From Astropecten irregularis (Eukaryota > Echinodermata > Asteroidea > Paxillosida > Astropectinidae): a stretch of DNA of 64,000 nt. Position 1 is the first letter of the stretch. Every line of letters starts with the position of its first letter. A program made the position numbers and the translations under genes. Below are positions 13,532-64,000 of the stretch, piece by piece. The DNA is taken from contig OZ020250.1 in assembly GCA_963971285.1 (NCBI GenBank), positions 12,818,499-12,882,498 on the forward strand. The letters run 5' to 3'. The notes beneath the pieces are model-generated. The model was not told where the DNA came from. It was given only the letters and a program-made list of their open reading frames with translations, and did no database searches.

Positions 13532-13720
13532 TTTTTTTTGGGGGGGGGGGGGGTGGGGTGGGTGGGGGGGGGGGGGTGGTGGTGGGGGTTAGGGGTTGGG
13601 GTGGCACGGTGGGGGTAGAACAGCCAATATTCTTTCTTTTGTGGGGGGGGGGGCTAGAAGAGCAATTTGGTTGTGGGTTTGTTTTTTTTTTGTGGGGGGG
13701 GGGGGGTGGTTCCAAAAAGA
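13532..13720. repeat. Long G-run tracts
   Basis: Several interrupted runs of 8-14 G on the plus strand within debris that also contains hAT-like motifs (GCTAGAAGAGC, AGAGCCAATA). Four or more G-runs are close enough to form a quadruplex in principle. Run lengths are assembly-sensitive. Confidence 0.6.
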
Positions 13721-38782: not shown

Positions 38783-38907
38783 GGGCTGATTTCACTAACA
38801 TTTACGATCATCGCTAAAGCCCAAATCCAAAGTAGCGATCGATTTTCCATTTAGCGATGGATTTGGGCTTTAGCGATGATTGCAAACGTTAGTGAAATCG
38901 GCCCCAG
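38783..38907. mobile_element. Fold-back MITE, GGGGCYGATTTCACTAAC family
   Basis: TGGGGCTGATTTCACTAACA and TTAGTGAAATCGGCCCCA are inverted. The arms continue with CGATCATCGCTAAAGCCCAA. Sister of 21446-21586. Confidence 0.9.
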
Positions 38908-38954
38908 GACTACAAAATTTCCCATCGCCAGGCCGACTCTTTGCATGTAGAATT

Positions 38955-39193: not shown

Positions 39194-40374
39194 ACGGTAC
39201 AGAGCACGTGAATCTCGTGCCCATATACTCCTTCAAATCTCTGCTACTCCTGATCCAGTTTACTTACGTGCTTACTGTGAAAAAAGAAACATTGAAACTT
39301 TGACCAAAGATTTCAAAATGTTCTACTCACGGACACCGACTTATTGACTTGCTGACTCATGATCTCAACGGGTCCGAAAGTCATCTGAAGTCATCTGAAG
39401 TTTTTGTTCAACGATCCAACACGCAGGAAACTTCTTCAAAATAAAGAAAGAAAAGTAAGGACTCGGAAGCTCAATCCACATTCGGTTAATTTCCTATCTA
39501 AGAAACGGGTTGTACAAGGGTCACCCTAAAGGGTCCAAACCGAATTAAGCTGGAGAAGAAGTAGCAGAGAGAGGAGTTAAAGCAACGCACACCGTCATAG
39601 TCTTAACCAGTCAGGCCTACTGGCCGTAGGGGGTCCCCTTGTCCCTACAATGTCCGAGTGTAGCTTACCCACGTGGCCACTGCCTTTAGGACCCACCTTT
39701 GACATTTGGGTAGAATTCCTCCGTCAAAGACAGAAGAATTCATGTTTGGTTTTACAATTATGCTGTATGTTGAGTGAAGAGTCATTTGAGATCAATATTG
39801 CACCATTTCTGTCTTGATATTTAGTGAATGTTATAGGTAAAACAAAGGATCGAGTGTCCGACGGTCAGACGGTTGACCTGGGTCCCTCCAGCTTTCTACG
39901 GCTCTGGGGTTTCAACGCCAGACACTTGGCGAAACTTCACCTACCCCGGACACTAGAGCAGGTATAGCGGCAATATTGTCAATGGCCGAGCACTTTTCAA
40001 AAGGTATGTTCCTTAAGCTTAACAAAAATTCGCTATATAGTTTTGGCTGTTAAAAAATCCCCCAAAATAGAAGTTGGCCCTAAATGAAATAAAAGTAAAA
40101 TTGATATGGCCGAATTATTTTCAAACAAAGGTTGTTAACGTTTCTATTGATATGTTGATATAAATGTTTGATTTTACCCGTAAGTGCCAGACCAACAACT
40201 GCCTAACGTCACCTGATCAGGGGACCTTCCGCCTACACGACACAGGTGTACGCAGCACAAAACACAACACAAACGAACCCAAAAACGTTTTTGTAAAAAA
40301 AAAAAAATTGGTTTCAGGTCTATGTCCAATTAATTTGAAATTGAAGTAAATTTGATGTGGAAAAATGAAAAACT

Positions 40375-40932
40375 ACAGAGCACGTGAATCTAGTGCCCAT
40401 ATACTCCTTCAAGGATCGAGTGTCCGACGGTCAGACGGTTGACCTGGGTCCCTCCAGCTTTCTACGGCTCTGGGGTTTCAACGCCAGACACTTGGCGAAA
40501 CTTCACTTACCCAGGACACTAGAGCAGGTATAGCGGCAATATTGTCATTGGACCAGCACTTTTCAAAAGGTATGTTCCTTAAGCTTAACAAAAATTCGCT
40601 AGTTTTGGCTGTTAAAAAATCCCCCAAAATAGAAGTTGGCCCTAAATGAAATAAAAGTAAAATTGATATGGCCGAATTATTTTCAAAGGTTGTTAACGTT
40701 TCTATTGATATGTTGATATAAATGTTTGATTTTACCCGTAAGTGCCAGACCAACAACTGCCTAACGTCACCTGATCAGGGGACCTTCCGCCTACACGACA
40801 CAGGTGTACGCAGCACAAAACACAACACAAACGAACCCAAACACGTTTTTTGTAAAAAACAAACTTTGGTTTCAGGTCTATGTCCAATTAATTTGAAATT
40901 GAAGTAAATTTGATGTGGAAAAATGAAAAACT
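40375..40932. repeat. 558-bp deleted monomer
   Basis: Starts as a normal unit, but CTCCTTCAA is fused directly to AGGATCGAGTGTCCGACGG, removing about 0.6 kb of the monomer. The next unit begins with a further loss (CTATATCTAGTGCCC lacks ACAGAGCACGTG). Confidence 0.85.
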
Positions 40933-43900
40933 ATATCTAGTGCCCATATACTCCTTCAAATCTCTGCTACTCCTGATCCAGTTTACTTACGTGCTTACTG
41001 TGAAAAAAGAAACGTGGAAACTTTGACCAAAGATTTCAAAATGTTCTACTCACGGACACCGACTTATTGACTTGCTGACTCAAGATCTCACCGGGTCCGA
41101 AAGTCATCTGAAGTCATCTTAAGTTTTTGTTCAACGAACCAACACCGTTGCAGGAAACTTCTTCAAAATAAAGAAAGAAAAGTAAGGACTCGGAAGCTCA
41201 ATCCACATTCGGTTAATTTCCTATCTAAGAAACGGGTTGTACAAGGGTCACCCTAAAGGGTCCAAACCCAATTAAGCTGGAAAAGAAGTAGCAGAGAGAG
41301 GAGTTAAAGCAACGCACACCGTCATAGTCTTAACCAGTCAGGCCTACTGGCCGTAGGGGGTCCCCTTGTCCCTACAATGTCCGAGTGTAGCTTACCCACG
41401 TGGCCACTGCCTTTAGGACCCACCTTTGACATTTTGGGTAGAATTCCTCCGTCAAAGACAGAAGAATTCATGTTTGGTTTTTCAATGCTGTATGTTGAGT
41501 GAAGAGTCATTTGAGATCAATATTGCACCATTTCTGTCTTGATATAGTGAATGTTATAGGTAAAACAAAGGATCGAGTGTCCGACGGTCAGACGGTTGAC
41601 TTGGGTCCCTCCAGCTTTCTACGGCTCTGGGGTTTCAACGCCAGACACTTGGCGAAACTTCACCTACCCCGGACACTAGAGCAGGTATAGCGGCAATATT
41701 GTCATTGGCCCAGCACTTTTCAAAAGGTATGTTCCTTAAGCTTAACAAAAATTCGCTAGTTTTGGCTGTTAAAAAATCCCCCAAAATAGAAGTTGGCCCT
41801 AAATGAAATAAAAGTAAAATTGATATGGCCGAATTATTTTCAAAGGTTGTTAACGTTTCTATTGTTATGTTGATATAAATGTTTGATTTTACCCGTAAGT
41901 GCCAGACCAATTAACAACTGCCTAACGTCACCTGATCAGGGGACCTTCCGCCTACACGACACAGGTGTACGCAGCACAAAACACAACACAAACGAACCCA
42001 AAAACGTTTTTGTAAAAAACAAACTTTGGTTTCAGGTCTATGTCCAATTAATTTGAAATTGAAGTAAATTTGATGTGGACGAATGAAAAACTACAGAGCA
42101 CGTGAATCTAGTGCCCATATACTCCTTAAATCTCTGCTACTCCTGATCCAGTTTACTTACGTGCTTACTGTGAAAAAAGAAACGGGGAAACTTTGACCAA
42201 AGATTTCAAAATGTTCTACTCACGGACACCGACTTATTGACTTGCTGACTCAAGATCTCAACGGGTCCGAAAGTCATCTGAAGTCATCTTAAGTTTTTGT
42301 TCAACGAACCAACACCGTTGCAGGAAACTTCTTCAAAATAAAGAAAGAAAAGTAAGGACTCGGAAGCTCAATTCACATTCGATTAATTATCTATCTAAGA
42401 AACGGGTTGTGCAAGGTTCCCCCCACTAGGGTCCAAACCCAATTAAGCTGGAGAAGAAGTAGCAGAGAGAGGAGTTAAAGCAACGCACACCGTCATAGTC
42501 TTAACCAGTCAGGCCTACTGGTCGTAGGGGGTCCCCTTGTCCCTACAATGTCCGAGTGTAGCTTACCCACGTGGCCACTGCCTTTAGGACCCACCTTTGA
42601 CATTTTGGTAGAATTCCTCCGTCAAAGACAGAAGAATTCATGTTTGGTTTTTCAATTATGCTGTATGTTGAGTGAAGAGTCATTTGAGATCAATATTGCA
42701 CCATTTCTGTCTTGATATTTAGTGAATGTTATAGGTAAAACAAAGGATCGAGTGTCCGACGGTCAGACGGTTGACCTGGGTCCCTCCAGCTTTCTACGGC
42801 TCTGGGGTTTCAACGCCAGACACTTGGCGAAACTTCACCTACCCCGGACACTAGAGAAGGTATAGCGGCAATATTGTCATTGGCCCAGCACTTTTCAAAA
42901 GGTATGTTCCTTAAGCTTAACAAAAATTCGCTAGTTTTGGCTGTTAAAAAATCCCCCAAAATAGAAGTTGGCCCTAAATGAAATAAAAGTAAAATTGATA
43001 TGGCCGAATTATTTTCAAAGGTTGTTAACGTTTCTATTGTTATGTTGATATAAATGTTTGATTTTACCCGTAAGTGCCAGACCAACAACTGCCTAACGTC
43101 ACCTGATCAGGGGACCTTCCGCCTACACGACACAGGTGTACGCAGCACAAAACACAACACAAACGAACCCAAAAACGTTTTTGTAAAAAACAAACTTTGG
43201 TTTCAGGTCTATGTCCAATTAATTTGAAATTGAAGTAAATTTGATGTGGACGAATGAAAAACTACAGAGCACGTGAATCTAGTGCCCATATACTCCTTCA
43301 AATCTCTGCTACTCCTGATCCAGTTTACTTACGTGCTTACTGTGAAAAAAGAAACGTGGAAACTTTGACCAAAGATTTCAAAATGTTCTACTCACGGACA
43401 CCGACTTATTGACTTGCTGACTCAAGATCTCACCGGGTCCGAAAGTCATCTGAAGTCATCTTAAGTTTTTGTTCAACGAACCAACACCGTTGCAGGAAAC
43501 TTCTTCAAAATAAAGAAAGAAAAGTAAGGACTCGGAAGCTCAATCCACATTCGATTAATTTCCTATCTAAGAAACGGGTTGTGCAAGGTTCCCCCTACTA
43601 GGGTCCAAACCCAATTAAGCTGGAGTAGAAGTAGCAGAGAGAGGAGTTAAAGCAACGCACACCGTCATAGTCTTAACCAGTCAGGCCTACTGGCCGTAGG
43701 GGGTCCCCTTGTCCCTACAATGTCCGAGTGTAGCTTACCCACGTGGCCACTGCCTTTAGGACCCACCTTTGACATTTTGGTAGAATTCCTCCGTCAAAGA
43801 CAGAAGAATTCATGTTTGGTTTTCCAATTATGCTGTATGTTGAGTGAAGAGTCATTTGAGATCAATATTGCACCATTTCTGTCTTGATATAGTGAATGTT

Positions 43901-46900
43901 ATAGGTAAAACAAAGGATCGAGTGTCCGACGGTCAGACGGTTGACCTGGGTCCCTCCAGCTTTCTACGGCTCTGGGGTTTCAACGCCAGACACTTGGCGA
44001 AACTTCACCTACCCCGGACACTAGAGCAGGTATATAGCGGCAATATTGTCATTGGCCGAGCACTTTTCAAAAGGTATGTTCCTTAAGCTTAACAAAAATT
44101 CGCTATATAGTTTTGGCTGTTAAAAAATCCCCCAAAATAGAAGTTGGCCCTAAATGAAATAAAAGTAAAATTGATATGGCCGAATTATTTTCAAACAAAG
44201 GTTGTTAACGTTTCTATTGATATGTTGATATAAATGTTTGATTTTCCCCATAAGTGCCAGACCAACAACTGCCTAACGTCACCTGATCAGGGGACCTTCC
44301 GCCTACACGACACAGGTGTACGCAGCACAAAACACAACACAAACGAACCCAAAAACGTTTTTGTAAAAAACAAACTTTGGTTTCAGGTCTATGTCCAATT
44401 AATTTGAAATTAAAGTAAATTTGATGTGGAAACATGAAAAAATACAGAGCACGTGAATCTCGTGCCCATATACTCCTTCAAATCTCTGGTTCTCCTGATC
44501 CAGTTTACTTACGTGCTTACTGTGAAAAAAGAAACATGGAAACTTTGACCAAATATTTCAAAATGTTCTACTCACGGACACCGACTTATTGACTTGCTGA
44601 CTCAAGATCTCAACGGGTCCGAAAGTCATCTGAAGTCATCTGAAGTTTTTGTTCAACGATCAAACACCATTGCAGGAAACTTCTTCAAAATAAAGAAAGA
44701 AAAAGTAAGGACTCGGAAGCTCAATCCACATTCGGTTAATTTCCTATCTAAGAAACGGGTTGTACAAGGCTCACCCTAAAGGGTCCAAACCCAATTAAGC
44801 TGGAAAAGAAGTAGCAGAGAGAGGAGTTAAAGCAACGCACACCGTAATAGTCTTAACCAGTCAGGCCTACTGGCCGTAGGGGGTCCCCTTGTCCCTACAA
44901 TGTCCGAGTGTAGCTTACCCACGTGGCCACTGCCTTTAGGACCCACCTTTGACATTTTGGTAGAATTCCTCCGTCAAAGACAGAAGAATTCATGTTTGGT
45001 TTTTCAATTATGCTGTATGTTGAGTGAAGAGTCATTTGAGATCAATATTGCACCATTTCTGTCTTGATATTTAGTGAATGTTATAGGTAAAACAAAGGAT
45101 CGAGTGTCCGACGGTCAGACGGTTGACCTGGGTCCCTCCAGCTTTCTACGGCTCTGGGGTTTCAACGCCAGACACTTGGCGAAACTTCACCTACCCCGGA
45201 CACTAGAGAAGGTATAGCGGCAATATTGTCATTGGCCCAGCACTTTTCAAAAGGTATGTTCCTTAAGCTTAACAAAAATTCGCTAGTTTTGGCTGTTAAA
45301 AAATCCCCCAAAATAGAAGTTGGCCCTAAATGAAATAAAAGTAAAATTGATATGGCCGAATTATTTTCAAAGGTTGTTAACGTTTCTATTGTTATGTTGA
45401 TATAAATGTTTGATTTTACCCGTAAGTGCCAGACCAACAACTGCCTAACGTCACCTGATCAGGGGACCTTCCGCCTACACGACACAGGTGTACGCAGCAC
45501 AAAACACAACACAAACGAACCCAAAAACGTTTTTGTAAAAAACAAACTTTGGTTTCAGGTCTATGTCCAATTAATTTGAAATTGAAGTAAATTTGATGTG
45601 GACGAATGAAAATCTACAGAGCACGTGAATCTAGTGCCCATATACTCCTTCAAATCTCTGCTACTCCTGATCCAGTTTACTTACGTGCTTACTGTGAAAA
45701 AAGAAACGTAGAAACTTTGACCAAAGATTTCAAAATGTTCTACTCACGGACACCGACTTATTGACTTGCTGACTCAAGATCTCACCGGGTCCGAAAGTCA
45801 TCTGAAGTCATCTTAAGTTTTTGTTCAACGAACCAACACCGTTGCAGGAAACTTCTTCAAAATAAAGAAAGAAAAGTAAGGACTCGGAAGCTCAATCCAC
45901 ATTCGGTTAATTTCCTATCTAAGAAACGGGTTGTGCAAGGTTCCCCCTACTAGGGTCCAAACCCAATTAAGCTGGAGAAGAAGTAGCAGAGAGAGGAGTT
46001 AAAGCAACGCACACCGTCATAGTCTTAACCAGTCAGGCCTACTGGCCGTAGGGGGTCCCCTTGTCCCTACAATGTCCGAGTGTAGCTTACCCACGTGGCC
46101 ACTGCCTTTAGGACCCACCTTTGACATTTTGGTAGAATTCCTCCGTCAAAGACAGAAGAATTCATGTTTGGTTTTACAATTATGCTGTATGTTGAGTGAA
46201 GAGTCATTTGAGATCAATATTGCACCATTTCTGTCTCGATATTTAGTGAATGTTATAGGTAAAACAAAGGATCGAGTGTCCGACGGTCAGACGGTTGACC
46301 TGGGTCCCTCCAGCTTTCTACGGCTCTGGGGTTTCAACGCCAGACACTTGGCGAAACTTCACTTACCCAGGACACTAGAGCAGGTATAGCGGCAATATTG
46401 TCATTGGCCCAGCACTTTTCAAAAGGTATGTTCCTTAAGCTTAACCAAAATTCGCTAGTTTTGGCTGTTAAAAAATCCCCCAAAATAGAAGTTGGCCCTA
46501 AATGAAATAAAAGTAAAATTGATATGGCCGAATTATTTTCAAACAAAGGTTGTTAACGTTTCTATTGATATGTTGATATAAATGTTTGATTTTACCCGTA
46601 AGTGCCAGACCAACAACTGCCTAACGTCACCTGATCAGGGGACCTTCCGCCTACACGACACAGGTGTACGCAGCACAAAACACAACACAAACGAACCCAA
46701 AAACGTTTTTGTAAAAAACAAACTTTGGTTTCAGGTCTATGCCCAATTAATTTGAAATTGAAGTAAATTTGATGTGGAAACATGAAAAACTACAGAGCAC
46801 GTGAATCTCGTGCCCATATACTCCTTCAAATCTCTGGTTCTCCTGATCCAGTTTACTTACGTGCTTACTGTGAAAAAAGAAACATGGAAACTTTGACCAA

Positions 46901-47729
46901 AGATTTCAAAATGTTCTACTCACGGACACCGACTTATTGACTTGCTGACTCAAGATCTCAACGGGTCCGAAAGTCATCTGAAGTCATCTGAAGTTTTTGT
47001 TCAACGATTCAACACCATTGCAGGAAACTTCTTCAAAATAAAGAAAGAAAAGTAAGGACTCGGAAGCTCAATCCACATTCGGTTAATTTCCTATCTAAGA
47101 AACGGGTTGTACAAGGGTCACCCTAAAGGGTCCAAACCCAATTAAGCTGGAAAAGAAGTAGCAGAGAGAGGAGTTAAAGCAACGCACACCGTCATAGTCT
47201 TAACCAGTCAGGCCTACTGGCCGTAGGGGGTCCCCTTGTCCCTACAATGTCCGAGTGTAGCTTACCCACGTGGCCACTGCCTTTAGGACCCACCTTTGAC
47301 ATTTTGGTAGAATTCCTCCGTCAAAGACAGAAGAATTCATGTTTGGTTTTTCAATTATGCTGTATGTTGAGTGAAGAGTCATTTGAGATCAATATTGCAC
47401 CATTTCTGTCTTGATATTTAGTGAATGTTATAGGTAAAACAAAGGATCGAGTGTCCGACGGTCAGACGGTTGACCTGGGTCCCTCCAGCTTTCTACGGCT
47501 CTGGGGTTTCAACGCCAGACACTTGGCGAAACTTCACCTACCCCGGACACTAGAGCAGGTATAGCGGCAATATTGTCATTGGCCCAGCACTTTTCAAAAG
47601 GTATGTTCCTTAAGCTGAACAAAAATTCGCTAGTTTTGGCTGTTAAAAAATCCCCCAAAATAGAAGTTTGCCCTAAAACATTTTCAAACAAAGGTTGTTA
47701 ACGTTTCTATTGATATGTTGATATAAATG

Positions 47730-50700
47730 TTTGATTTTACCCGTAAGTGCCAGACCAACAACTGCCTAACGTCACCTGATCAGGGGACCTTCCGCCTACA
47801 CGACACAGGTGTACGCAGCACAAAACACAACACAAACGAACCCAAAAACGTTTTTGTAAAAAACAAACTTTGGTTTCAGGTCTATGTCCAATTAATTTGA
47901 AATTGAAGTAAATTTGATGTGGAAACATGAAAAACTACAGAGCACGTGAATCTCGTGCCCATATATACTCCTTCAAATCTCTGCTACTCCTGATCCAGTT
48001 TACTTACGTGCTTACTGTGAAAAAAAAACATGGAAACTTTGACCAAAGATTTCAAAATGTTCTACTCACTGACACCGACTTATTGACTTGCTGACTCAAG
48101 ATCTCACCGGGTCCGAAAGTCATCTGAAGTCATCTGAAGTTTTTGTTCAACGAACCAACACCGTTGCAGGAAACTACTTCAAAATAAAGAAAGAAAAGTA
48201 AGGACTCGGAAGCTCAATCCACATTCGATTAATTTCCTATCTAAGAAACGGGTTGTGCAAGGTTCCCCCTACTAGGGTCCAAACCCAATTAAGCTGGAGA
48301 AGAAGTAGCAGAGAGAGGAGTTAAAGCAACGCACACCGTCATAGTCTTAACCAGTCAGGCCTACTGGCCGTAGGGGGTCCCCTTGTCCCTACAATGTCCG
48401 AGTGTAGCTTACCCACGTGGCCACTGCCTTTAGGACCCACCTTTGACATTTTGGTAGAATTCCTCCGTCAAAGACAGAAGAATTCATGTTTGGTTTTTCA
48501 ATTATGCTGTATGTTGAGTGAAGAGTCATTTGAGATCAATATTGCACCATTTCTGTCTTGATATTTAGTGAATGTTATAGGTAAAACAAAGGATCGAGTG
48601 TCCGACGGTCAGACGGTTGACCTGGGTCCCTCCAGCTTTCTACGGCTCTGGGGTTTCAACGCCAGACACTTGGCGAAACTTCACCTACCCCGGACACTAG
48701 AGCAGGTATAGCGGCAATATTGTCATTGGCCCAGCACTTTTCAAAAGGTATGTTCCTTAAGCTGAACAAAAATTCGCTAGTTTTGGCTGTTAAAAAATCC
48801 CCCAAAATAGAAGTTTGCCCTAAAACATTTTCAAACAAAGGTTGTTAACGTTTCTATTGATATGTTGATATAAATGTTTGATTTTACCCGTAAGTGCCAG
48901 ACCAACAACTGCCTAACGTCACCTGATCAGGGGACCTTCCGCCTACACGACACAGGTGTACGCAGCACAAAACACAACACAAACGAACCCAAAAACGTTT
49001 TTGTAAAAAACAAACTTTGGTTTCAGGTCTATGTCCAATTAATTTGAAATTGAAGTAAATTTGATGTGGAAACATGAAAAACTACAGAGCACGTGAATCT
49101 CGTGCCCATATACTCCTTCAAATCTCTGCTACTCCTGATCCAGTTTACTTACGTGCTTACTGTGAAAAAAAAAACATGGAAACTTTGACCAAAGATTTCA
49201 AAATGTTCTACTCACGGACACCGACTTATTGACTTGCTGACTCAAGATCTCACCGGGTCCGAAAGTCATCTGAAGTCATCTGAAGTTTTTGTTCAACGAA
49301 CCAACACCGTTGCAGGAAACTACTTCAAAATAAAGAAAGAAAAGTAAGGACTCGGAAGCTCAATCCACATTCGATTAATTTCCTATCTAAGAAACGGGTT
49401 GTGCAAGGTTCCCCCTACTAGGGTCCAAACCCAATTAAGCTGGAGAAGAAGTAGCAGAGAGAGGAGTTAAAGCAACGCACACCGTCATAGTCTTAACCAG
49501 TCAGGCCTACTGGCCGTAGGGGGTCCCCTTGTCCCTACAATGTCCGAGTGTAGCTTACCCACGTGGCCACTGCCTTTAGGACCCACCTTTGACATTTTGG
49601 TAGAATTCCTCCGTCAAAGACAGAAGAATTCATGTTTGGTTTTTCAATTATGCTGTATGTTGAGTGAAGAGTCATTTGAGATCAATATTGCACCATTTCT
49701 GTCTTGATATTTAGTGAATGTTATAGGTAAAACAAAGGATCGAGTGTCCGACGGTCAGACGGTTGACCTGGGTCCCTCCAGCTTTCTACGGCTCTGGGGT
49801 TTCAACGCCAGACACTTGGCGAAACTTCACCTACCCCGGACACTAGAGCAGGTATAGCGGCAATATTGTCATTGGCCCAGCACTTTTCAAAAGGTATGTT
49901 CCTTAAGCTGAACAAAAATTCGCTAGTTTTGGCTGTTAAAAAATCCCCCAAAATAGAAGTTTGCCCTAAAACATTTTCAAACAAAGGTTGTTAACGTTTC
50001 TATTGATATGTTGATATAAATGTTTGATTTTACCCGTAAGTGCCAGACCAACAACTGCCTAACGTCACCTGATCAGGGGACCTTCCGCCTACACGACACA
50101 GGTGTACGCAGCACAAAACACAACACAAACGAACCCAAAAACGTTTTTGTAAAAAACAAACTTTGGTTTCAGGTCTATGTCCAATTAATTTGAAATTGAA
50201 GTAAATTTGATGTGGAAACATGAAAAACTACAGAGCACGTGAATCTCGTGCCCATATACTCCTTCAAATCTCTGCTACTCCTGATCCAGTTTACTTACGT
50301 GCTTACTGTGAAAAAAAAAACATGGAAACTTTGACCAAAGATTTCAAAATGTTCTACTCACGGACACCGACTTATTGACTTGCTGACTCAAGATCTCACC
50401 GGGTCCGAAAGTCATCTGAAGTCATCTGAAGTTTTTGTTCAACGAACCAACACCGTTGCAGGAAACTACTTCAAAATAAAGAAAGAAAAGTAAGGACTCG
50501 GAAGCTCAATCCACATTCGATTAATTTCCTATCTAAGAAACGGGTTGTGCAAGGTTCCCCCTACTAGGGTCCAAACCCAATTAAGCTGGAGAAGAAGTAG
50601 CAGAGAGAGGAGTTAAAGCAACGCACACCGTCATAGTCTTAACCAGTCAGGCCTACTGGCCGTAGGGGGTCCCCTTGTCCCTACAATGTCCGAGTGTAGC

Positions 50701-51960
50701 TTACCCACGTGGCCACTGCCTTTAGGACCCACCTTTGACATTTTGGTAGAATTCCTCCATCAAAGACAGAAGAATTCATGTTTGGTTTTTCAATTATGCT
50801 GTATGTTGAGTGAAGAGTCATTTGAGATCAATATTGCACCATTTCTGTCTTGATATTTAGTGAATGTTATAGGTAAAACAAAGGATCGAGTGTCCGACGG
50901 TCAGACGGTTGACCTGGGTCCCTCCAGCTTTCTACGGCTCTGGGGTTTCAACGCCAGACACTTGGCGAAACTTCACCTACCCCGGACACTAGAGCAGGTA
51001 TAGCGGCAATATTGTCATTGGCCCAGCACTTTTCAAAAGGTATGTTCCTTAAGCTGAACAAAAATTCGCTAGTTTTGGCTGTTAAAAAATCCCCCAAAAT
51101 AGAAGTTTGCCCTAAAACATTTTCAAACAAAGGTTGTTAACGTTTCTATTGATATGTTGATATAAATGTTTGATTTTACCCGTAAGTGCCAGACCAACAA
51201 CTGCCTAACGTCACCTGATCAGGGGACCTTCCGCCTACACGACACAGGTGTACGCAGCACAAAACACAACACAAACGAACCCAAAAACGTTTTTGTAAAA
51301 AACAAACTTTGGTTTCAGGTCTATGTCCAATTAATTTGAAATTGAAGTAAATTTGATGTGGAAACATGAAAAACTACAGAGCACGTGAATCTCGTGCCCA
51401 TATACTCCTTCAAATCTCTGCTACTCCTGATCCAGTTTACTTACGTGCTTACTGTGAAAAAAAAAACATGGAAACTTTGACCAAAGATTTCAAAATGTTC
51501 TACTCACGGACACCGACTTATTGACTTGCTGACTCAAGATCTCACCGGGTCCGAAAGTCATCTGAAGTCATCTGAAGTTTTTGTTCAACGAACCAACACC
51601 GTTGCAGGAAACTACTTCAAAATAAAGAAAGAAAAGTAAGGACTCGGAAGCTCAATCCACATTCGATTAATTTCCTATCTAAGAAACGGGTTGTGCAAGG
51701 TTCCCCCTACTAGGGTCCAAACCCAATTAAGCTGGAGAAGAAGTAGCAGAGAGAGGAGTTAAAGCAACGCACACCGTCATAGTCTTAACCAGTCAGGCCT
51801 ACTGGCCGTAGGGGGTCCCCTTGTCCCTACAATGTCCGAGTGTAGCTTACCCACGTGGCCACTGCCTTTAGGACCCACCTTTGACATTTTGGTAGAATTC
51901 CTCCGTCAAAGACAGAAGAATTCATGTTTGGTTTTTCAATTATGCTGTATGTTGAGTGAA
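47730..51960. repeat. Block of near-identical 1146-bp monomers
   Basis: Four consecutive periods of 1145-1147 bp differ by only a few bases. They carry AAGTTTGCCCTAAAACATTT in place of the roughly 28-bp longer GTTGGCCCTAAATGAAATAAA version of the left units. Confidence 0.9.
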
Positions 51961-54900
51961 GAGTCATTTGAGATCAATATTGCACCATTTCTGTCTTAAT
52001 AATTTTATAGTGAGTGTTATAGGTAAAACAAAGGATCGAGTGTCCGACGGTCAGACGGTTGACCTGGGTCCCTCCAGCTTTCTACGGCTCTGGGGTTTCA
52101 ACGCCAGACACTTGGCGAAACTTCACCTACCCCGGACACTAGAGCAGGTATAGCGGCAATATTGTCATTGGCCGAGCACTTTTCAAAAGGTATGTTCCTT
52201 AAGCTGAACAAAAATTCGCTAGTTTTGGCTGTTAAAAAATCCCCCAAAATAGAAGTTTGCCCTAAAACATTTTCAAACAAAGGTTGTTAACGTTTCTATT
52301 GATGTGGAAACATGAAAAACTACAGAGCACGTGAATCTCGTGCCCATATACTCCTTCAAATCTCTGCTACTCCTGATCCAGTTTACTTACGTGCTTACTG
52401 TGAAAAAAAAAACATGGAAACTTTGACCAAAGATTTCAAAATGTTCTACTCATGTTTTTTTTTTGAACAAAAATTCGCTAGTTTTGGCTGTTAAAAAATC
52501 CCCCAAAATAGAAGTTTGCCCTAAAACATTTTCAAACAAAGGTTGTTAACGTTTCTATTGATGTGGAAACATCAAATTCGCTAGTTTTGGCTGTTAAAAA
52601 ATCCCCCAAAATAGAAGTTTGCCCTAAAACATTTTCAAACAAAGGTTGTTAACGTTTCTATTGATATGTTGATATAAATGTTTGATTTTACCCGTAAGTG
52701 CCAGACCAACAACTGCCTAACGTCACCTGATCAGGGGACCTTCCGCCTACACGACACAGGTGTACGCAGCACAAAACACAACACAAACGAACCCAAAAAC
52801 GTTTTTGTAAAAAACAAACTTTGGTTTCAGGTCTATGTCCAATTAATTTGAAATTGAAGTAAATTTGATGTGGAAACATGAAAAACTACAGAGCACGTGA
52901 ATCTCGTGCCCATATACTCCTTCAAATCTCTGCTACTCCTGATCCAGTTTACTTACGTGCTTACTGTGAAAAAAAAAACATGGAAACTTTGACCAAAGAT
53001 TTCAAAATGTTCTACTCACGGACACCGACTTATTGACTTGCTGACTCAAGATCTCACCGGGACCGAAAGTCATCTGAAGTCATCTGAAGTTTTTGTTCAA
53101 CGAACCAACACCGTTGCAGGAAACTACTTCAAAATAAAGAAAGAAAAGTAAGGACTCGGAAGCTCAATCCACATTCGATTAATTTCCTATCTAAGAAACG
53201 GGTTGTGCAAGGTTCCCCCTACTAGGGTCCAAACCCAATTAAGCTGGAGAAGAAGTAGCAGAGAGAGGAGTTAAAGCAACGCACACCGTCATAGTCTTAA
53301 CCAGTCAGGCCTACTGGCCGTAGGGGGTCCCCTTGTCCCTACAATGTCCGAGTGTAGCTTACCCACGTGGCCACTGCCTTTAGGACCCACCTTTGACATT
53401 TTGGTAGAATTCCTCCGTCAAAGACAGAAGAATTCATGTTTGGTTTTTCAATTATGCTGTATGTTGAGTGAAGAGTCATTTGAGATCAATATTGCACCAT
53501 TTCTGTCTTAATAATTTTATAGTGAGTGTTATAGGTAAAACAAAGGATCGAGTGTCCGACGGTCAGACGGTTGACCTGGGTCCCTCCAGCTTTCTACGGC
53601 TCTGGGGTTTCAACGCCAGACACTTGGCGAAACTTCACCTACCCCGGACACTAGAGCAGGTATAGCGGCAATATTGTCATTGGCCGAGCACTTTTCAAAA
53701 GGTATGTTCCTTAAGCTGAACAAAAATTCGCTAGTTTTGGCTGTTAAAAAATCCCCCAAAATAGAAGTTTGCCCTAAAACATTTTCAAACAAAGGTTGTT
53801 AACGTTTCTATTGATGTGGAAACATGAAAAACTACAGAGCACGTGAATCTCGTGCCCATATACTCCTTCAAATCTCTGCTACTCCTGATCCAGTTTACTT
53901 ACGTGCTTACTGTGAAAAAAAAAACATGGAAACTTTGACCAAAGATTTCAAAATGTTCTACTCATGTTTTTTTTTTGAACAAAAATTCGCTAGTTTTGGC
54001 TGTTAAAAAATCCCCCAAAATAGAAGTTTGCCCTAAAACATTTTCAAACAAAGGTTGTTAACGTTTCTATTGATGTGGAAACATCAAATTCGCTAGTTTT
54101 GGCTGTTAAAAAATCCCCCAAAATAGAAGTTTGCCCTAAAACATTTTCAAACAAAGGTTGTTAACGTTTCTATTGATATGTTGATATAAATGTTTGATTT
54201 TACCCGTAAGTGCCAGACCAACAACTGCCTAACGTCACCTGATCAGGGGACCTTCCGCCTACACGACACAGGTGTACGCAGCACAAAACACAACACAAAC
54301 GAACCCAAAAACGTTTTTGTAAAAAACAAACTTTGGTTTCAGGTCTATGTCCAATTAATTTGAAATTGAAGTAAATTTGATGTGGAAACATGAAAAAATA
54401 CAGAGCACGTGAATCTCGTGCCCATATACTCCTTCAAATCTCTGTACTCCTGATCCAGTTTACTTACGTGCTTACTGTGAAAAAAAAAACATGGAAACTT
54501 TGACCAAAGATTTCAAAATGTTCTACTCACGGACACCGACTTATTGACTTGCTGACTCAAGATCTCACCGGGTCCGAAAGTCATCTGAAGTCATCTGAAG
54601 TTTTTGTTCAACGAACCAACACCGTTGCAGGAAACTACTTCAAAATAAAGAAAGAAAAGTAAGGACTCGGAAGCTCAATCCACATTCGATTAATTTCCTA
54701 TCTAAGAAACGGGTTGTGCAAGGTTCCCCCTACTAGGGTCCAAACCCAATTAAGCTGGAGAAGAAGTAGCAGAGAGAGGAGTTAAAGCAACGCACACCGT
54801 CATAGTCTTAACCAGTCAGGCCTACTGGCCGTAGGGGGTCCCCTTGTCCCTACAATGTCCGAGTGTAGCTTACCCACGTGGCCACTGCCTTTAGGACCCA

Positions 54901-57112
54901 CCTTTGACATTTTGGTAGAATTCCTCCGTCAAAGACAGAAGAATTCATGTTTGGTTTTTCAATTATGCTGTATGTTGAGTGAAGAGTCATTTGAGATCAA
55001 TATTGCACCATTTCTGTCTTAATAATTTTATAGTGAGTGTTATAGGTAAAACAAAGGATCGAGTGTCCGACGGTCAGACGGTTGACCTGGGTCCCTCCAG
55101 CTTTCTACGGCTCTGGGGTTTCAACGCCAGACACTTGGCGAAACTTCACCTACCCCGGACACTAGAGCAGGTATAGCGGCAATATTGTCATTGGCCGAGC
55201 ACTTTTCAAAAGGTATGTTCCTTAAGCTGAACAAAAATTCGCTAGTTTTGGCTGTTAAAAAATCCCCCAAAATAGAAGTTTGCCCTAAAACATTTTCAAA
55301 CAAAGGTTGTTAACGTTTCTATTGATGTGGAAACATGAAAAACTACAGAGCACGTGAATCTCGTGCCCATATACTCCTTCAAATCTCTGCTACTCCTGAT
55401 CCAGTTTACTTACGTGCTTACTGTGAAAAAAAAAACATGGAAACTTTGACCAAAGATTTCAAAATGTTCTACTCATGTTTTTTTTTTGAACAAAAATTCG
55501 CTAGTTTTGGCTGTTAAAAAATCCCCCAAAATAGAAGTTTGCCCTAAAACATTTTCAAACAAAGGTTGTTAACGTTTCTATTGATATGTTGATATAAATG
55601 TTTGATTTTACCCGTAAGTGCCAGACCAACAACTGCCTAACGTCACCTGATCAGGGGACCTTCCGCCTACACGACACAGGTGTACGCAGCACAAAACACA
55701 ACACAAACGAACCCAAAAACGTTTTTGTAAAAAACAAACTTTGGTTTCAGGTCTATGTCCAATTAATTTGAAATTGAAGTAAATTTGATGTGGAAACATG
55801 AAAAAATACAGAGCACGTCAATCTCGTGCCCATATACTCCTTCAAATCTCTGTACTCCTGATCCAGTTTACTTACGTGCTTACTGTGAAAAAAAAAACAT
55901 GGAAACTTTGACCAAAGATTTCAAAATGTTCTACTCACGGACACCGACTTATTGACTTGCTGACTCAAGATCTCACCGGGTCCGAAAGTCATCTGAAGTC
56001 ATCTGAAGTTTTTGTTCAACGAACCAACACCGTTGCAGGAAACTACTTCAAAATAAAGAAAGAAAAGTAAGGACTCGGAAGCTCAATCCACATTCGATTA
56101 ATTTCCTATCTAAGAAACGGGTTGTGCAAGGTTCCCCCTACTAGGGTCCAAACCCAATTAAGCTGGAGAAGAAGTAGCAGAGAGAGGAGTTAAAGCAACG
56201 CACACCGTCATAGTCTTAACCAGTCAGGCCTACTGGTCGTAGGGGGTCCCCTTGTCCCTACAATGTCCGAGTGTAGCTTACCCACGTGGCCACTGCCTTT
56301 AGGACCCACCTTTGACATTTTGGTAGAATTCCTCCGTCAAAGACAGAAGAATTCATGTTTGGTTTCTCAATTATGCTGTATGTTGAGTGAAGAGTCATTT
56401 GAGATCAATATTGCACCATTTCTGTCTTAATAATTTTATAGTGAGTGTTATAGGTAAAACAAAGGATCGAGTGTCCGACGGTCAGACGGTTGACCTGGGT
56501 CCCTCCAGCTTTCTACGGCTCTGGGGTTTCAACGCCAGACACTTGGCGAAACTTCACCTACCCCGGACACTAGAGCAGGTATAGCGGCAATATTGTCATT
56601 GGCCGAGCACTTTTCAAAAGGTATGTTCCTTAAGCTGAACAAAAATTCGCTAGTTTTGGCTGTTAAAAAATCCCCCAAAATAGAAGTTTGCCCTAAAACA
56701 TTTTCAAACAAAGGTTGTTAACGTTTCTATTGATGTGGAAACATGAAAAACTACAGAGCACGTGAATCTCGTGCCCATATACTCCTTCAAATCTCTGCTA
56801 CTCCTGATCCAGTTTACTTACGTGCTTACTGTGAAAAAAAAAACATGGAAACTTTGACCAAAGATTTCAAAATGTTCTACTCATGTTTTTTTTTTGAACA
56901 AAAATTCGCTAGTTTTGGCTGTTAAAAAATCCCCCAAAATAGAAGTTTGCCCTAAAACATTTTCAAACAAAGGTTGTTAACGTTTCTATTGATGTGGAAA
57001 CATCAAATTCGCTAGTTTTGGCTGTTAAAAAATCCCCCAAAATAGAAGTTTGCCCTAAAACATTTTCAAACAAAGGTTGTTAACGTTTCTATTGATATGT
57101 TGATATAAATGT
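51956..57112. repeat. 1512/1408-bp rearranged higher-order units
   Basis: Each unit is the 1146-bp monomer plus about 366 bp: a partial second copy running from GATGTGGAAACATGAAAAAC to TTCTACTCA, joined through a T-run to GAACAAAAATTCGCTAG, plus a roughly 106-bp duplicate ending GATGTGGAAACATCAAATTC. The 1408-bp unit (54193-55601) lacks one 106-bp duplicate. Confidence 0.88.
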
Positions 57113-58258
57113 TTGATTTTACCCGTAAGTGCCAGACCAACAACTGCCTAACGTCACCTGATCAGGGGACCTTCCGCCTACACGACACAGGTGTACGCAG
57201 CACAAAACACAACACAAACGAACCCAAAAACGTTTTTGTAAAAAACAAACTTTGGTTTCAGGTCTATGTCCAATTAATTTGAAATTGAAGTAAATTTGAT
57301 GTGGAAACATGAAAAAATACAGAGCACGTGAATCTCGTGCACATATATACTCCTTCAAATCTCTGCTACTCCTGATCCAGTTTACTTACGTGCTTACTGT
57401 GAAAAAAAAACATGGAAACTTTGACCAAAGATTTCAAAATGTTCTACTCACGGACACCGACTTATTGACTTGCTGACTCAAGATCTCACCGGGTCCGAAA
57501 GTCATCTGAAGTCATCTGAAGTTTTTGTTCAACGAACCAACACCGTTGCAGGAAACTACTTCAAAATAAAGAAAGAAAAGTAAGGACTCGGAAGCTCAAT
57601 CCACATTCGATTAATTTCCTATCTAAGAAACGGGTTGTGCAAGGTTCCCCCTACTAGGGTCCAAACCCAATTAAGCTGGAGAAGAAGTAGCAGAGAGAGG
57701 AGTTAAAGCAACGCACACCGTCATAGTCTTAACCAGTCAGGCCTACTGGCCGTAGGGGGTCCCCTTGTCCCTACAATGTCCGAGTGTAGCTTACCCACGT
57801 GGCCACTGCCTTTAGGACCCACCTTTGACATTTTGGTAGAATTCCTCCGTCAAAGACAGAAGAATTCATGTTTGGTTTTTCAATTATGCTGTATGTTGAG
57901 TGAAGAGTCATTTGAGATCAATATTGCACCATTTCTGTCTTGATATTTAGTGAATGTTATAGGTAAAACAAAGGATCGAGTGTCCGACGGTCAGACGGTT
58001 GACCTGGGTCCCTCCAGCTTTCTACGGCTCTGGGGTTTCAACGCCAGACACTTGGCGAAACTTCACCTACCCCGGACACTAGAGCAGGTATAGCGGCAAT
58101 ATTGTCATTGGCCCAGCACTTTTCAAAAGGTATGTTCCTTAAGCTGAACAAAAATTCGCTAGTTTTGGCTGTTAAAAAATCCCCCAAAATAGAAGTTTGC
58201 CCTAAAACATTTTCAAACAAAGGTTGTTAACGTTTCTATTGATATGTTGATATAAATG

Positions 58259-61200
58259 TTTGATTTTAACCGTAAGTGCCAGACCAACAACTGCCTAACG
58301 TCACCTGATCAGGGGACCTTCCGCCTACACGACACAGGTGTACGCAGCACAAAACACAACACAAACGAACCCAAAAACGTTTTTGTAAAAAACAAACTTT
58401 GGTTTCAGGTCTATGTCCAATTAATTTGAAATTGAAGTAAATTTGATGTGGAAACATGAAAAACTACAGAGCACGTGAATTTCGTGCCCATATACTCCTT
58501 CAAATCTCTGCTACTCCTGATCCAGTTTACTTACGTGCTTACTGTGAAAAAAAAAACATGGAAACTTTGACCAAAGATTTCAAAATGTTCTACTCATGTT
58601 TTTTTTTTTGAACAAAAATTCGCTAGTTTTGGCTGTTAAAAAATCCCCAAAAATAGAAGTTTGCCCTAAAACATTTTCAAACAAAGGTTGTTAACGTTTC
58701 TATTGATGTGGAAACATCAAATTCGCTAGTTTTGGCTGTTAAAAAATCCCCCAAAATAGAAGTTTGCCCTAAAACATTTTCAAACAAAGGTTGTTAACGT
58801 TTCTATTGATATGTTGATATAAATGTTTGATTTTACCCGTAAGTGCCAGACCAACAACTGCCTAACGTCACCTGATCAGGGGACCTTCCGCCTACACGAC
58901 ACAGGTGTACGCAGCACAAAACACAACACAAACGAACCCAAAAACGTTTTTGTAAAAAACAAACTTTGGTTTCAGGTCTATGTCCAATTAATTTGAAATT
59001 GAAGTAAATTTGATGTGGAAACATGAAAAAATACAGAGCACGTGAATCTCGTGCCCATATACTCCTTCAAATCTCTGTACTCCTGATCCAGTTTACTTAC
59101 GTGCTTACTGTGAAAAAAAAAACATGGAAACTTTGACCAAAGATTTCAAAATGTTCTACTCACGGACACCGACTTATTGACTTGCTGACTCAAGATCTCA
59201 CCGGGTCCGAAAGTCATCTGAAGTCATCTGAAGTTTTTGTTCAACGAACCAACACCGTTGCAGGAAACTACTTCAAAATAAAGAAAGAAAAGTAAGGACT
59301 CGGAAGCTCAATCCACATTCGATTAATTTCCTATCTAAGAAACGGGTTGTGCAAGGTTCCCCCTACTAGGGTCCAAACCCAATTAAGCTGGAGAAGAAGT
59401 AGCAGAGAGAGGAGTTAAAGCAACGCACACCGTCATAGTCTTAACCAGTCAGGCCTACTGGCCGTAGGGGGTCCCCTTGTCCCTACAATGTCCGAGTGTA
59501 GCTTACCCACGTGGCCACTGCCTTTAGGACCCACCTTTGACATTTTGGTAGAATTCCTCCGTCAAAGACAGAAGAATTCATGTTTGGTTTTTCAATTATG
59601 CTGTATGTTGAGTGAAGAGTCATTTGAGATCAATATTGCACCATTTCTGTCTTAATAATTTTATAGTGAGTGTTATAGGTAAAACAAAGGATCGAGTGTC
59701 CGACGGTCAGACGGTTGACCTGGGTCCCTCCAGCTTTCTACGGCTCTGGGGTTTCAACGCCAGACACTTGGCGAAACTTCACCTACCCCGGACACTAGAG
59801 CAGGTATAGCGGCAATATTGTCATTGGCCGAGCACTTTTCAAAAGGTATGTTCCTTAAGCTGAACAAAAATTCGCTAGTTTTGGCTGTTAAAAAATCCCC
59901 CAAAATAGAAGTTTGCCCTAAAACATTTTCAAACAAAGGTTGTTAACGTTTCTATTGATATGTTGATATAAATGTTTGATTTTAACCGTAAGTGCCAGAC
60001 CAACAACTGCCTAACGTCACCTGATCAGGGGACCTTCCGCCTACACGACACAGGTGTACGCAGCACAAAACACAACACAAACGAACCCAAAAACGATTTT
60101 GTATAAAACAAACTTTGGTTTCAGGTCTATGTCCAATTAATTTGAAATTGAAGTAAATTTGATGTGGAAACATGAAAAACTACAGAGCACGTGAATTTCG
60201 TGCCCATATACTCCTTCAAATCTCTGCTACTCCTGATCCAGTTTACTTACGTGCTTACTGTGAAAAAAAAAACATGGAAACTTTGACCAAAGATTTCAAA
60301 ATGTTCTACTCATGTTTTTTTTTTTGAACAAAAATTCGCTAGTTTTGGCTGTTAAAAAATCCCCAAAAATAGAAGTTTGCCCTAAAACATTTTCAAACAA
60401 AGGTTGTTAACGTTTCTATTGATGTGGAAACATCAAATTCGCTAGTTTTGGCTGTTAAAAAATCCCCCAAAATAGAAGTTTGCCCTAAAACATTTTCAAA
60501 CAAAGGTTGTTAACGTTTCTATTGATATGTTGATATAAATGTTTGATTTTACCCGTAAGTGCCAGACCAACAACTGCCTAACGTCACCTGATCAGGGGAC
60601 CTTCCGCCTACACGACACAGGTGTACGCAGCACAAAACACAACACAAACGAACCCAAAAACGTTTTTGTAAAAAACAAACTTTGGTTTCAGGTCTATGTC
60701 CAATTAATTTGAAATTGAAGTAAATTTGATGTGGAAACATGAAAAAATACAGAGCACGTGAATCTCGTGCCCATATACTCCTTCAAATCTCTGTACTCCT
60801 GATCCAGTTTACTTACGTGCTTACTGTGAAAAAAAAAACATGGAAACTTTGACCAAAGATTTCAAAATGTTCTACTCACGGACACCGACTTATTGACTTG
60901 CTGACTCAAGATCTCACCGGGTCCGAAAGTCATCTGAAGTCATCTGAAGTTTTTGTTCAACGAACCAACACCGTTGCAGGAAACTACTTCAAAATAAAGA
61001 AAGAAAAGTAAGGACTCGGAAGCTCAATCCACATTCGATTAATTTCCTATCTAAGAAACGGGTTGTGCAAGGTTCCCCCTACTAGGGTCCAAACCCAATT
61101 AAGCTGGAGAAGAAGTAGCAGAGAGAGGAGTTAAAGCAACGCACACCGTCATAGTCTTAACCAGTCAGGCCTACTGGCCGTAGGGGGTCCCCTTGTCCCT

Positions 61201-61794
61201 ACAATGTCCGAGTGTAGCTTACCCACGTGGCCACTGCCTTTAGGACCCACCTTTGACATTTTGGTAGAATTCCTCCGTCAAAGACAGAAGAATTCATGTT
61301 TGGTTTTTCAATTATGCTGTATGTTGAGTGAAGAGTCATTTGAGATCAATATTGCACCATTTCTGTCTTAATAATTTTATAGTGAGTGTTATAGGTAAAA
61401 CAAAGGATCGAGTGTCCGACGGTCAGACGGTTGACCTGGGTCCCTCCAGCTTTCTACGGCTCTGGGGTTTCAACGCCAGACACTTGGCGAAACTTCACCT
61501 ACCCCGGACACTAGAGCAGGTATAGCGGCAATATTGTCATTGGCCGAGCACTTTTCAAAAGGTATGTTCCTTAAGCTGAACAAAAATTCGCTAGTTTTGG
61601 CTGTTAAAAAATCCCCCAAAATAGAAGTTTGCCCTAAAACATTTTCAAACAAAGGTTGTTAACGTTTCTATTGATGTGGAAACATCAAATTCGCTAGTTT
61701 TGGCTGTTAAAAAATCCCCCAAAATAGAAGTTTGCCCTAAAACATTTTCAAACAAAGGTTGTTAACGTTTCTATTGATATGTTGATATAAATGT
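58259..61794. repeat. Alternating 567-bp and 1149-bp units
   Basis: Anchors at 58259, 58826, 59975, 60542 and 61794 give spacings 567, 1149, 567 and 1252. The 567-bp unit lacks about 0.7 kb of the monomer between TTCTACTCA and GAACAAAAATT, bridged by a T10 run. The repeated 567+1149 pair is itself a duplicated unit. Confidence 0.85.
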
Positions 61795-64000
61795 TTGATT
61801 TTACCCGTAAGTGCCAGACCAACAACTGCCTAACGTCACCTGATCAGGGGACCTTCCGCCTACACGACACAGGTGTACGCAGCACAAAACACAACACAAA
61901 CGAACCCAAAAACGTTTTTGTAAAAAACAAACTTTGGTTTCAGGTCTATGTCCAATTAATTTGAAATTGAAGTAAATTTGATGTGGAAACATGAAAAACT
62001 ACAGAGCACGTGAATCTCGTGCCCATATACTCCTTCAAATCTCTGCTACTCCTGATCCAGTTTACTTACGTGCTTACTGTGAAAAAAAAAACATGGAAAC
62101 TTTGACCAAAGATTTCAAAATGTTCTACTCACGGACACCGACTTATTGACTTGCTGACTCAAGATCTCACCGGGTCCGAAAGTCATCTGAAGTCATCTGA
62201 AGTTTTTGTTCAACGAACCAACACCGTTGCAGGAAACTACTTCAAAATAAAGAAAGAAAAGTAAGGACTCGGAAGCTCAATCCACATTCGATTAATTTCC
62301 TATCTAAGAAACGGGTTGTGCAAGGTTCCCCCTACTAGGGTCCAAACCCAATTAAGCTGGAAAAGAAGTAGCAGAGAGAGGAGTTAAAGCAACGCACACC
62401 GTCATAGTCTTAACCAGTCAGGCCTACTGGTCGTAGGGGGTCCCCTTGTCCCTACAATGTCCGAGTGTAGCTTACCCACGTGGCCACTGCCTTTAGGACC
62501 CACCTTTGACATTTTGGTAGAATTCCTCCGTCAAAGACAGAAGAATTCATGTTTGGTTTTTCAATTATGCTGTATGTTGAGTGAAGAGTCATTTGAGATC
62601 AATATTGCACCATTTCTGTCTTAATAATTTTATAGTGAGTGTTATAGGTAAAACAAAGGATCGAGTGTCCGACGGTCAGACGGTTGACCTGGGTCCCTCC
62701 AGCTTTCTACGGCTCTGGGGTTTCAACGCCAGACACTTGGCGAAACTTCACCTACCCCGGACACTAGAGCAGGTATAGCGGCAATATTGTCATTGGCCGA
62801 GCACTTTTCAAAAGGTATGTTCCTTAAGCTGAACAAAAATTCGCTAGTTTTGGCTGTTAAAAAATCCCCCAAAATAGAAGTTTGCCCTAAAACATTTTCA
62901 AACAAAGGTTGTTAACGTTTCTATTGATGTGGAAACATGAAAAACTACAGAGCACGTGAATCTCGTGCCCATATACTCCTTCAAATCTCTGCTACTCCTG
63001 ATCCAGTTTACTTACGTGCTTACTGTGAAAAAAAAAACATGGAAACTTTGACCAAAGATTTCAAAATGTTCTACTCATGTTTTTTTTTTGAACAAAAATT
63101 CGCTAGTTTTGGCTGTTAAAAAATCCCCCAAAATAGAAGTTTGCCCTAAAACATTTTCAAACAAAGGTTGTTAACGTTTCTATTGATGTGGAAACATCAA
63201 ATTCGCTAGTTTTGGCTGTTAAAAAATCCCCCAAAATAGAAGTTTGCCCTAAAACATTTTCAAACAAAGGTTGTTAACGTTTCTATTGATATGTTGATAT
63301 AAATGTTTGATTTTACCCGTAAGTGCCAGACCAACAACTGCCTAACGTCACCTGATCAGGGGACCTTCCGCCTACACGACACAGGTGTACGCAGCACAAA
63401 ACACAACACAAACGAACCCAAAAACGTTTTTGTAAAAAACAAACTTTGGTTTCAGGTCTATGTCCAATTAATTTGAAATTGAAGTAAATTTGATGTGGAA
63501 ACATGAAAAACTACAGAGCACGTGAATCTCGTGCCCATATATACTCCTTCAAATCTCTGCTACTCCTGATCCAGTTTACTTACGTGCTTACTGTGAAAAA
63601 AAAACATGGAAACTTTGACCAAAGATTTCAAAATGTTCTACTCACGGACACCGACTTATTGACTTGCTGACTCAAGATCTCAACGGGTCCGAAAGTCATC
63701 TGAAGTCATCTGAAGTTTTTGTTCAACGATCCAACACCATTGCAGGAAACTTCTTCAAAAAAAAGAAAGAAAAGTAAGGACTCGGAAGCTCAATCCACAT
63801 TCGGTTAATTTCCTATCTAAGAAACGGGTTGTACAAGGGTCACCCTAAAGGGTCCAAACCCAATTAAGCTGGAAAAGAAGTAGCAGAGAGAGGAGTTAAA
63901 GCAACGCACACCGTCATAGTCTTAACCAGTCAGGCCTACTGGCCGTAGGGGGTCCCCTTGTCCCTACAATGTCCGAGTGTAGCTTACCCACGTGGCCACT

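What the first reader, a model, noticed from the sequence alone, without database searches (positions are those of the whole stretch)
39199..64000. Large satellite array of a roughly 1.15-1.18 kb monomer, still running at the window edge
At least 21 anchor copies fill 24.8 kb. The monomer is long for a satellite, has no recognisable gene, and is not matched by any repeat I can name. Its size and homogeneity fit a centromeric, subtelomeric or heterochromatic satellite, or an amplified fragment of an unknown gene. The location in the chromosome cannot be told from here.
Basis: seen in the sequence. Interest (0 to 1): 0.7.

Follow-up and report, generated by a model that had tools for sequence, protein, structure and literature searches.

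The report
Two-locus tandem array with conserved islands
A 31-kb head-to-tail array of roughly 1.2-kb units without a recognisable gene sits among genes on one chromosome of a eukaryote, probably an animal, with a smaller inverted relative on the same chromosome; parts of each unit change much less than the rest, so it looks more like a macrosatellite than like centromere DNA.

Summary
The array is real. In the window 20 units run head to tail from 39199 to the edge. The 1.15-1.18 kb length holds only to about 52.0 kb; beyond, units are 1.25-1.72 kb through internal duplications. The array ends 6.5 kb past the window, about 31.3 kb in all.

It does not look like a genome-wide satellite. In the 475.7 Mb own genome a 35-nt core (up to 3 mismatches) was listed at 30 places, all on contig C14: 25 here, 5 in an inverted array 7.5 Mb away whose full units are 84-89% identical to this array's consensus. 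Both arrays end in a homologous 0.8-kb cap, and each has a PF03407 glycosyltransferase gene within 20 kb.

Monomer ORFs match no Pfam family and change neutrally. Four GC-richer islands per unit vary much less than the rest, between and within arrays; this suggests constraint, though one early test was not significant and one island has a marginal coding-like signal.

Best reading: a macrosatellite-like, locus-restricted array with non-coding functional islands; what they do is inferred, not shown.

The parts
39199..47443 (+). A-type block: a 648-bp partial unit, a 566-bp partial unit and six units of 1157-1182 bp; U04/U06 (6 mismatches) and U05/U07 (14) resemble each other more than their neighbours, as in a two-unit higher-order pattern
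47444..52032 (+). B-type block: four units of 1146-1150 bp, 99.7-99.9% identical to each other
52033..64000 (+). C-type block: eight units, seven of 1253-1716 bp and a last one cut by the window edge (1508 bp in full), made of the B-type monomer with internal duplications; a 103-bp tandem piece occurs in seven places; the last unit returns to A-type sequence
45097..46268 (+). reference unit U06 (1172 bp), used to place the islands
45097..45236 (.). island I1 (monomer 1-140), GC 0.56; 0 fixed differences between the two arrays
45418..45498 (.). island I2 (monomer 322-402), GC 0.58; 0 fixed differences between the arrays
45732..45818 (.). island I3 (monomer 636-722); 1 fixed difference; its counterparts in the two caps differ at 2 of about 80 bases inside a 74%-identical block
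46001..46156 (.). island I4 (monomer 905-1060), GC 0.53; 4 of 156 sites variable among 25 array-1 units, 1 fixed difference

Best explanation
This is a macrosatellite-like, locus-restricted array: a long-unit tandem array found at two places on one chromosome. Shown: two arrays in opposite orientation, a shared divergent cap at the same end, higher identity inside array 1 than between the arrays, mosaic units, and islands of reduced variation. Inferred: an ancestral array with its cap, probably with a neighbouring glycosyltransferase gene, was duplicated on the chromosome; unequal exchange and gene conversion then homogenised each array separately and made the partial and internally duplicated units. 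The islands are most likely held by selection on non-coding function, either protein-binding sites (boundary or promoter elements) or parts of a non-coding transcript, perhaps driven from the cap. Which of these it is was not shown.
For: Whole-genome pattern search: 30 matches listed, 25 + and 5 -, all on C14 in two arrays; the reversed control pattern gave 0. Cap search: 31 matches, one full-length self match, one partner at 74% beside array 2, and 29 partial ones, all on C14 inside or beside the two arrays. On a midpoint-rooted tree 23 array-1 units form one clade (support 0.983) with the 4 full array-2 units outside. Mosaic units and the A/B/C haplotype switch. Islands against the rest, variable sites: 25 array-1 units 33/464 vs 189/708, p=1.5e-18; the 19 that start in the window 15/464 vs 68/708, p=2.1e-5; six A-type units 11/464 vs 36/708, p=0.022; 5 array-2 units 29/464 vs 168/708, p=1.9e-16. 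Between arrays, substitutions only, the quietest 60-bp window has permutation p=0.0008; 100- and 150-bp windows 0 of 5000. ORF changes at neutral ratio: 24 of 93 synonymous over 13 overlapping ORFs, expected 0.24-0.28. The far end of the cap has 14 CpG in 150 bp, the most of the 14 windows listed on that side.
Against: The first test, inside array 1 alone (10 units, scanning windows), was not significant (p 0.06-0.17). The islands were chosen by me from the between-array profile and are richer in GC than the spacers, so part of the contrast may be mutational; against the moderate segments M3-M5 only it weakens (p 5.4e-7, 0.0017, 0.0061 and 0.0041 for the four sets). Sites in related copies are not independent. 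No CTCF, YY1 or CENP-B match beats shuffles. No marked RNA structure: 0 of 118 windows below z -3. CpG observed/expected is noisy: windows outside the cap's end also exceed 1.4. Transcription and protein binding were not testable. Units of 1.15-1.7 kb are shorter than the 'several kilobases' of human macrosatellites.
Confidence: 0.62

Rival explanations
1. A tandemly amplified short-exon gene, coding or non-coding, whose exons are the islands.
For: GC-richer islands separated by AT-rich spacers. Island 1 has 9 synonymous of 15 changes in one + frame (35 codons, then a stop) and 9 of 14 in one - frame (which contains stops); the best-of-six-frames excess has p=0.033. A GTGAGT at the edge of island 3 on the minus strand, seen by eye.
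Against: The other three islands show no synonymous excess (best-of-six p 0.92, 0.95, 0.76). Indels of 1, 2 or 4 bp fall inside islands 2 and 3 and at the end of island 1 in some copies. Longest ORF 98 aa in the consensus, 128 aa in a single unit; no Pfam match. A simple splice-site scan with a recalled matrix passed only two donors per strand, not the GTGAGT.
Confidence: 0.2
2. An ordinary neutral satellite array that happens to be confined to two loci; the islands reflect mutation bias, with AT-rich spacers changing fast.
For: Divergence is highest in the AT-rich segments 141-320 and 401-520; the within-array scan was not significant; neutral ORF pattern.
Against: Islands stay less variable than the moderate segments M3-M5. 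Island 3 in the caps differs at 2 of about 80 bases while the cap as a whole is 74% identical.
Confidence: 0.15
3. A tandemly multiplied fragment of a transposable element.
For: Tandem repeats inside mobile elements are known: an oyster Helentron paper, PMC7492417, was seen in a search listing only.
Against: No copy of the island-1 core listed outside the two arrays, no Pfam match in the monomer ORFs, only short weak inverted matches in the monomer.
Confidence: 0.03

Closest known systems
Human SST1 macrosatellites on chromosome 19 (PMC3018141; abstract and search passages seen)
   Same: Two arrays on one chromosome in opposite orientation, more alike within than between arrays, in a gene-bearing region, ORFs without known protein match.
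   Different: SST1 units are 2.4-2.5 kb, 97-98% identical between the two chromosome 19 arrays, with a further array on chromosome 4; here 1.15-1.72 kb, 84-89% for full array-2 units against the array-1 consensus, no third array listed. Sequence relation was not tested.
DXZ4 macrosatellite (PMC3218863; abstract seen)
   Same: Array on a single chromosome, not obviously coding, whose old conservation is limited to parts of the unit (promoter and CTCF site).
   Different: 3-kb GC-rich units; here about 40% GC and no CTCF-like site beyond shuffles.
Long centromeric satellite AfCen1K of Allium fistulosum, 1.2 kb (PMC7644871; abstract seen)
   Same: Monomer length.
   Different: AfCen1K lies at all centromeres of its species; this repeat was listed at two places on one contig.
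Bufonid BamHI-800 long satellite, 807 bp (PMC9385698; abstract seen)
   Same: Long monomer evolving in concert.
   Different: Pericentromeric on some chromosome pairs; this array lies among genes in mid-contig.

Membership tests
[quoted passage not shown]
   30 core matches listed, all on C14 in two arrays; 31 cap matches only there; island 2-4 searches unanswered
macrosatellite | repeat units of several kilobases (wording of PMC3018141) | tested here: not met
   1.15-1.72 kb; so it is called macrosatellite-like, not filed as a member
macrosatellite | uninterrupted head-to-tail array | tested here: met
macrosatellite | copy number varies between individuals | not testable with these tools
   one assembly only
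centromeric satellite | present at many or all centromeres, in long arrays (recalled) | tested here: not met
   two arrays of about 31 and 6 kb on one contig
centromeric satellite | CENP-B box or CENP-A binding | tested here: inconclusive
   no CENP-B box (motif recalled); CENP-A not testable, and many species lack the box (recalled)
subtelomeric satellite | lies near a chromosome end | tested here: not met
   12.86 and 5.37 of 22.99 Mb, taking C14 as a chromosome; no run of TTAGGG or TTAGG in the window
tandem protein-coding gene array | reading frame under purifying selection | tested here: inconclusive
   24 of 93 changes synonymous over 13 ORFs; three islands neutral, island 1 marginal at p=0.033
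known structured RNA gene array | match to an Rfam family | tested here: not met
   no match in the array at gathering score; over 2561 bases at E up to 5, three weak matches (E 1.9-2.6, far under gathering score)

The most novel reading that the evidence does not exclude
A counterpart, probably outside vertebrates, of DXZ4/SST1: a chromosome-specific array whose islands act as repeated boundary or promoter elements, or as exons of a long non-coding RNA driven from the cap, duplicated together with a glycosyltransferase gene and kept as a pair of inverted arrays on one chromosome, where they could pair, loop or invert the 7.5 Mb between them.
Probability: 0.25. Interest if true: 0.6.

Novelty: new member of a known kind. 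Interest (0 to 1): 0.4.

Why it matters
If the islands are functional, this is a clean case for asking why some non-coding sequences are kept in many tandem copies: two separately homogenised arrays in one genome, a shared cap, and fast-changing spacers for comparison. It also shows that a long homogeneous array need not be centromere DNA.

Tried and rejected
Centromeric, subtelomeric and genome-wide satellite: set aside on genome distribution. Known RNA genes: Rfam at gathering score over the window and at E up to 5 over 2561 bases. Protein-coding: ORFs, Pfam, PDB with one monomer ORF, substitution tests. Motifs: CENP-B, G-quadruplex, palindromes and telomere repeats, CTCF, CENP-B, YY1 and E-box against 60 shuffles; none stood out (motif strings recalled). 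RNA structure: 3 of 40 windows of 160 nt below z -2; 3 of 118 of 90 nt below -2, none below -3. Phage and plasmid collections, distant blastn with one unit: no match. Exact patterns: 0 matches in viral contigs and genome contigs. Left flanks: only short scattered matches, no collinear block (about 20 kb each side, plus strand). The species was not identified. Macrosatellites outside vertebrates: one search (macrosatellite + invertebrate) gave 11 papers, 10 listed; I looked inside the two coral papers among them, where the word stands only in a cited human title; the others were seen as listings, so this is weak evidence of absence.

Rows dropped: one search used 10 of 20 in-window units (U02-U11) for the consensus; one search used 4 of 6 array-2 units (full-length only); one search dropped matches covering under 80% of an island; one search's distance table left out U00, U01 and U19; one search left out the partial units U00 and the first of array 2, so 25 and 5 rows were counted there and, and its tree used 23 of 25 and 4 of 5 of these.

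Full report
What is there. From 39199 to the window edge the sequence is a head-to-tail array on one strand. Cut at a fixed anchor it gives 20 units. The first eight are A-type (648- and 566-bp partial units, then 1157-1182 bp), the next four B-type (1146-1150 bp, 99.7-99.9% identical), and from 52033 C-type (1512, 1511, 1408, 1509, 1716, 1716, 1253 bp and a last one cut by the edge). C-type units are B-type monomers with parts copied inside them, including a 103-bp piece in tandem. The last unit switches from C-type to A-type haplotype part-way. The longest exact repeats are 1571 and 1542 bp.

Beyond the window. The window is C14:12818499-12882498 of a 475.7 Mb genome in 168 contigs; C14 is 22.99 Mb. 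After the unit cut by the edge (1508 bp in full) come five full units of 1168-1179 bp and a partial one; the array ends 6509 bases past the window, so it is about 31.3 kb with 25 units that carry island 1. Three of the five right-hand full units are the most divergent of array 1 on the tree.

How widespread. A 35-nt core of island 1, up to 3 mismatches, was listed at 30 places in the genome: 25 on the + strand in this array and 5 on the - strand at C14:5368148-5372836; the reversed control gave 0. The monomer search, which skips common words and did not list the window's own array, found 7 matches, all in that second array and its flank, full units at 83-88% identity (84-89% against the consensus, partial edge units 78-80%). 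The tool warns that counts of repeats can be lower bounds. Patterns for the other islands did not complete, so the claim of two loci rests on the island-1 core, the monomer and the cap.

The shared cap. Beyond the right end both arrays carry a homologous block (array 1: C14:12889348-12890158; array 2: 5366555-5367352, 74%), which holds a diverged piece of monomer with island 3 and ends in a CpG-rich stretch (14 CpG in 150 bp at 71550-71699 in window-extended coordinates; o/e 1.54, but o/e over 150 bp is noisy here). The left flanks share only short scattered matches. Each array also has a PF03407 glycosyltransferase on the cap side: about 16 kb from the end of array 1 and 3.5 kb from that of array 2, in opposite orientation relative to the array, the two proteins 42% identical. 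The genome holds at least 46 matches to that family, in clusters on several contigs. My rough arithmetic (46 x 40 kb over 475.7 Mb, squared) puts both arrays being this close by chance near 1.5e-5; it is post hoc and treats the genes as evenly spread. It suggests that array, cap and gene were duplicated as one segment; the low protein identity means the copy is old or the genes are only family members.

Islands. Between the arrays, differences are very uneven: monomer 1-140, 322-402, parts of 555-720 and 860-1080 are nearly unchanged, while 141-320 and 401-520 are highly diverged (4 of 6 array-2 units). With substitutions alone the quietest 60-bp window has p=0.0008 and the 100- and 150-bp windows 0 of 5000 permutations. 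I then fixed four islands and counted variable sites within arrays: 33/464 in islands vs 189/708 elsewhere (25 array-1 units), 15/464 vs 68/708 (the 19 that start in the window), 11/464 vs 36/708 (six A-type units, p=0.022), 29/464 vs 168/708 (5 of 6 array-2 units). Against the moderate segments M3-M5 alone the contrast stays but weakens (75/409, 34/409, 25/409 and 49/409; p 5.4e-7, 0.0017, 0.0061, 0.0041). Against my reading: the first, unguided scan inside array 1 was not significant, island choice was mine, the spacers are AT-rich, and related copies are not independent.

What the islands are not, so far. None of the 13 consensus ORFs of 40 aa or more matches Pfam, the one tried ORF has no PDB match, and no Rfam family matches the array. 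The longest consensus ORF is 98 aa; one unit holds 128 aa. Over the 13 overlapping ORFs 24 of 93 distinct changes are synonymous, 66 are not and 3 make stops, as expected without selection on protein. By island, three show no coding pattern; island 1 has a marginal one (best-of-six-frames p=0.033), so a small coding exon there is not excluded. Some copies carry 1-, 2- or 4-bp indels inside islands 2 and 3 and at the end of island 1. No 90-nt RNA window is below z -3, and no CENP-B, CTCF or YY1 match beats shuffles.

Setting. The window holds a SEC11 signal-peptidase exon on the minus strand (22587-22781; Pfam and PDB); the ORF at 21122-21397 reads like the next exon by eye but has no Pfam match. 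The right side holds Fic, glycosyltransferase and sulfotransferase ORFs. This is gene-bearing DNA in mid-contig. The host is a eukaryote, probably an animal (inference); the species was not identified.

Interpretation. Shown: two inverted arrays on one contig, array-1 units one clade (support 0.983, midpoint-rooted), mosaic units, a shared cap, and uneven variation. Inferred: segmental duplication, separate homogenisation by unequal exchange and conversion, and constraint on non-coding islands. The human SST1 arrays on chromosome 19 (two inverted arrays; passages) and DXZ4 (old conservation limited to promoter and CTCF site; abstract) are the nearest parallels in behaviour. It fails the 'several kilobases' wording for macrosatellites, so I call it macrosatellite-like; as a long-unit tandem array without a recognised gene it is a new member of a known kind.

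Noticed in passing
10889-11088: A run of exactly 200 N, a scaffolding gap away from the array; 200 N is a default of some Hi-C scaffolders (recalled).
   Followed up: no
22587-22781 (-), perhaps also 21122-21397 (-): An exon of a SEC11 signal peptidase catalytic subunit (Peptidase_S26 match, PDB SEC11A/C); the second ORF looks like SEC11 by eye only.
   Followed up: partly
38781-38911, also 21445-21529 and copies right of the window: A foldback element of the MITE type, matched on both strands at several places and also in the array-2 flank.
   Followed up: partly
26501-26776 (+) and 27232-27531 (-): Two inverted copies of an unnamed repeat whose ORFs share the stretch [24 protein letters not shown].
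   Followed up: no
35869-35943 (+) and 20895-20968 (-): Two low-scoring Rfam tRNA matches, the second also called by ARAGORN; possibly tRNA-derived SINEs.
   Followed up: no
2737-2897, 2936-3051, 13539-13604: Short tandem repeats of 18-21 bp and a G-rich tract.
   Followed up: no
L011:7028-7737: A likely minisatellite whose frames read as repeated peptides such as HTEITVSPQCD.
   Followed up: no
G000 contigs C1, C9, C14, C15, C19, C25 and others: PF03407 glycosyltransferases form an expanded family, at least 46 matches, many in clusters.
   Followed up: partly
L009:147-1331 (+): A 395-aa Fic-domain ORF 3.6 kb beyond the right end of the array.
   Followed up: partly
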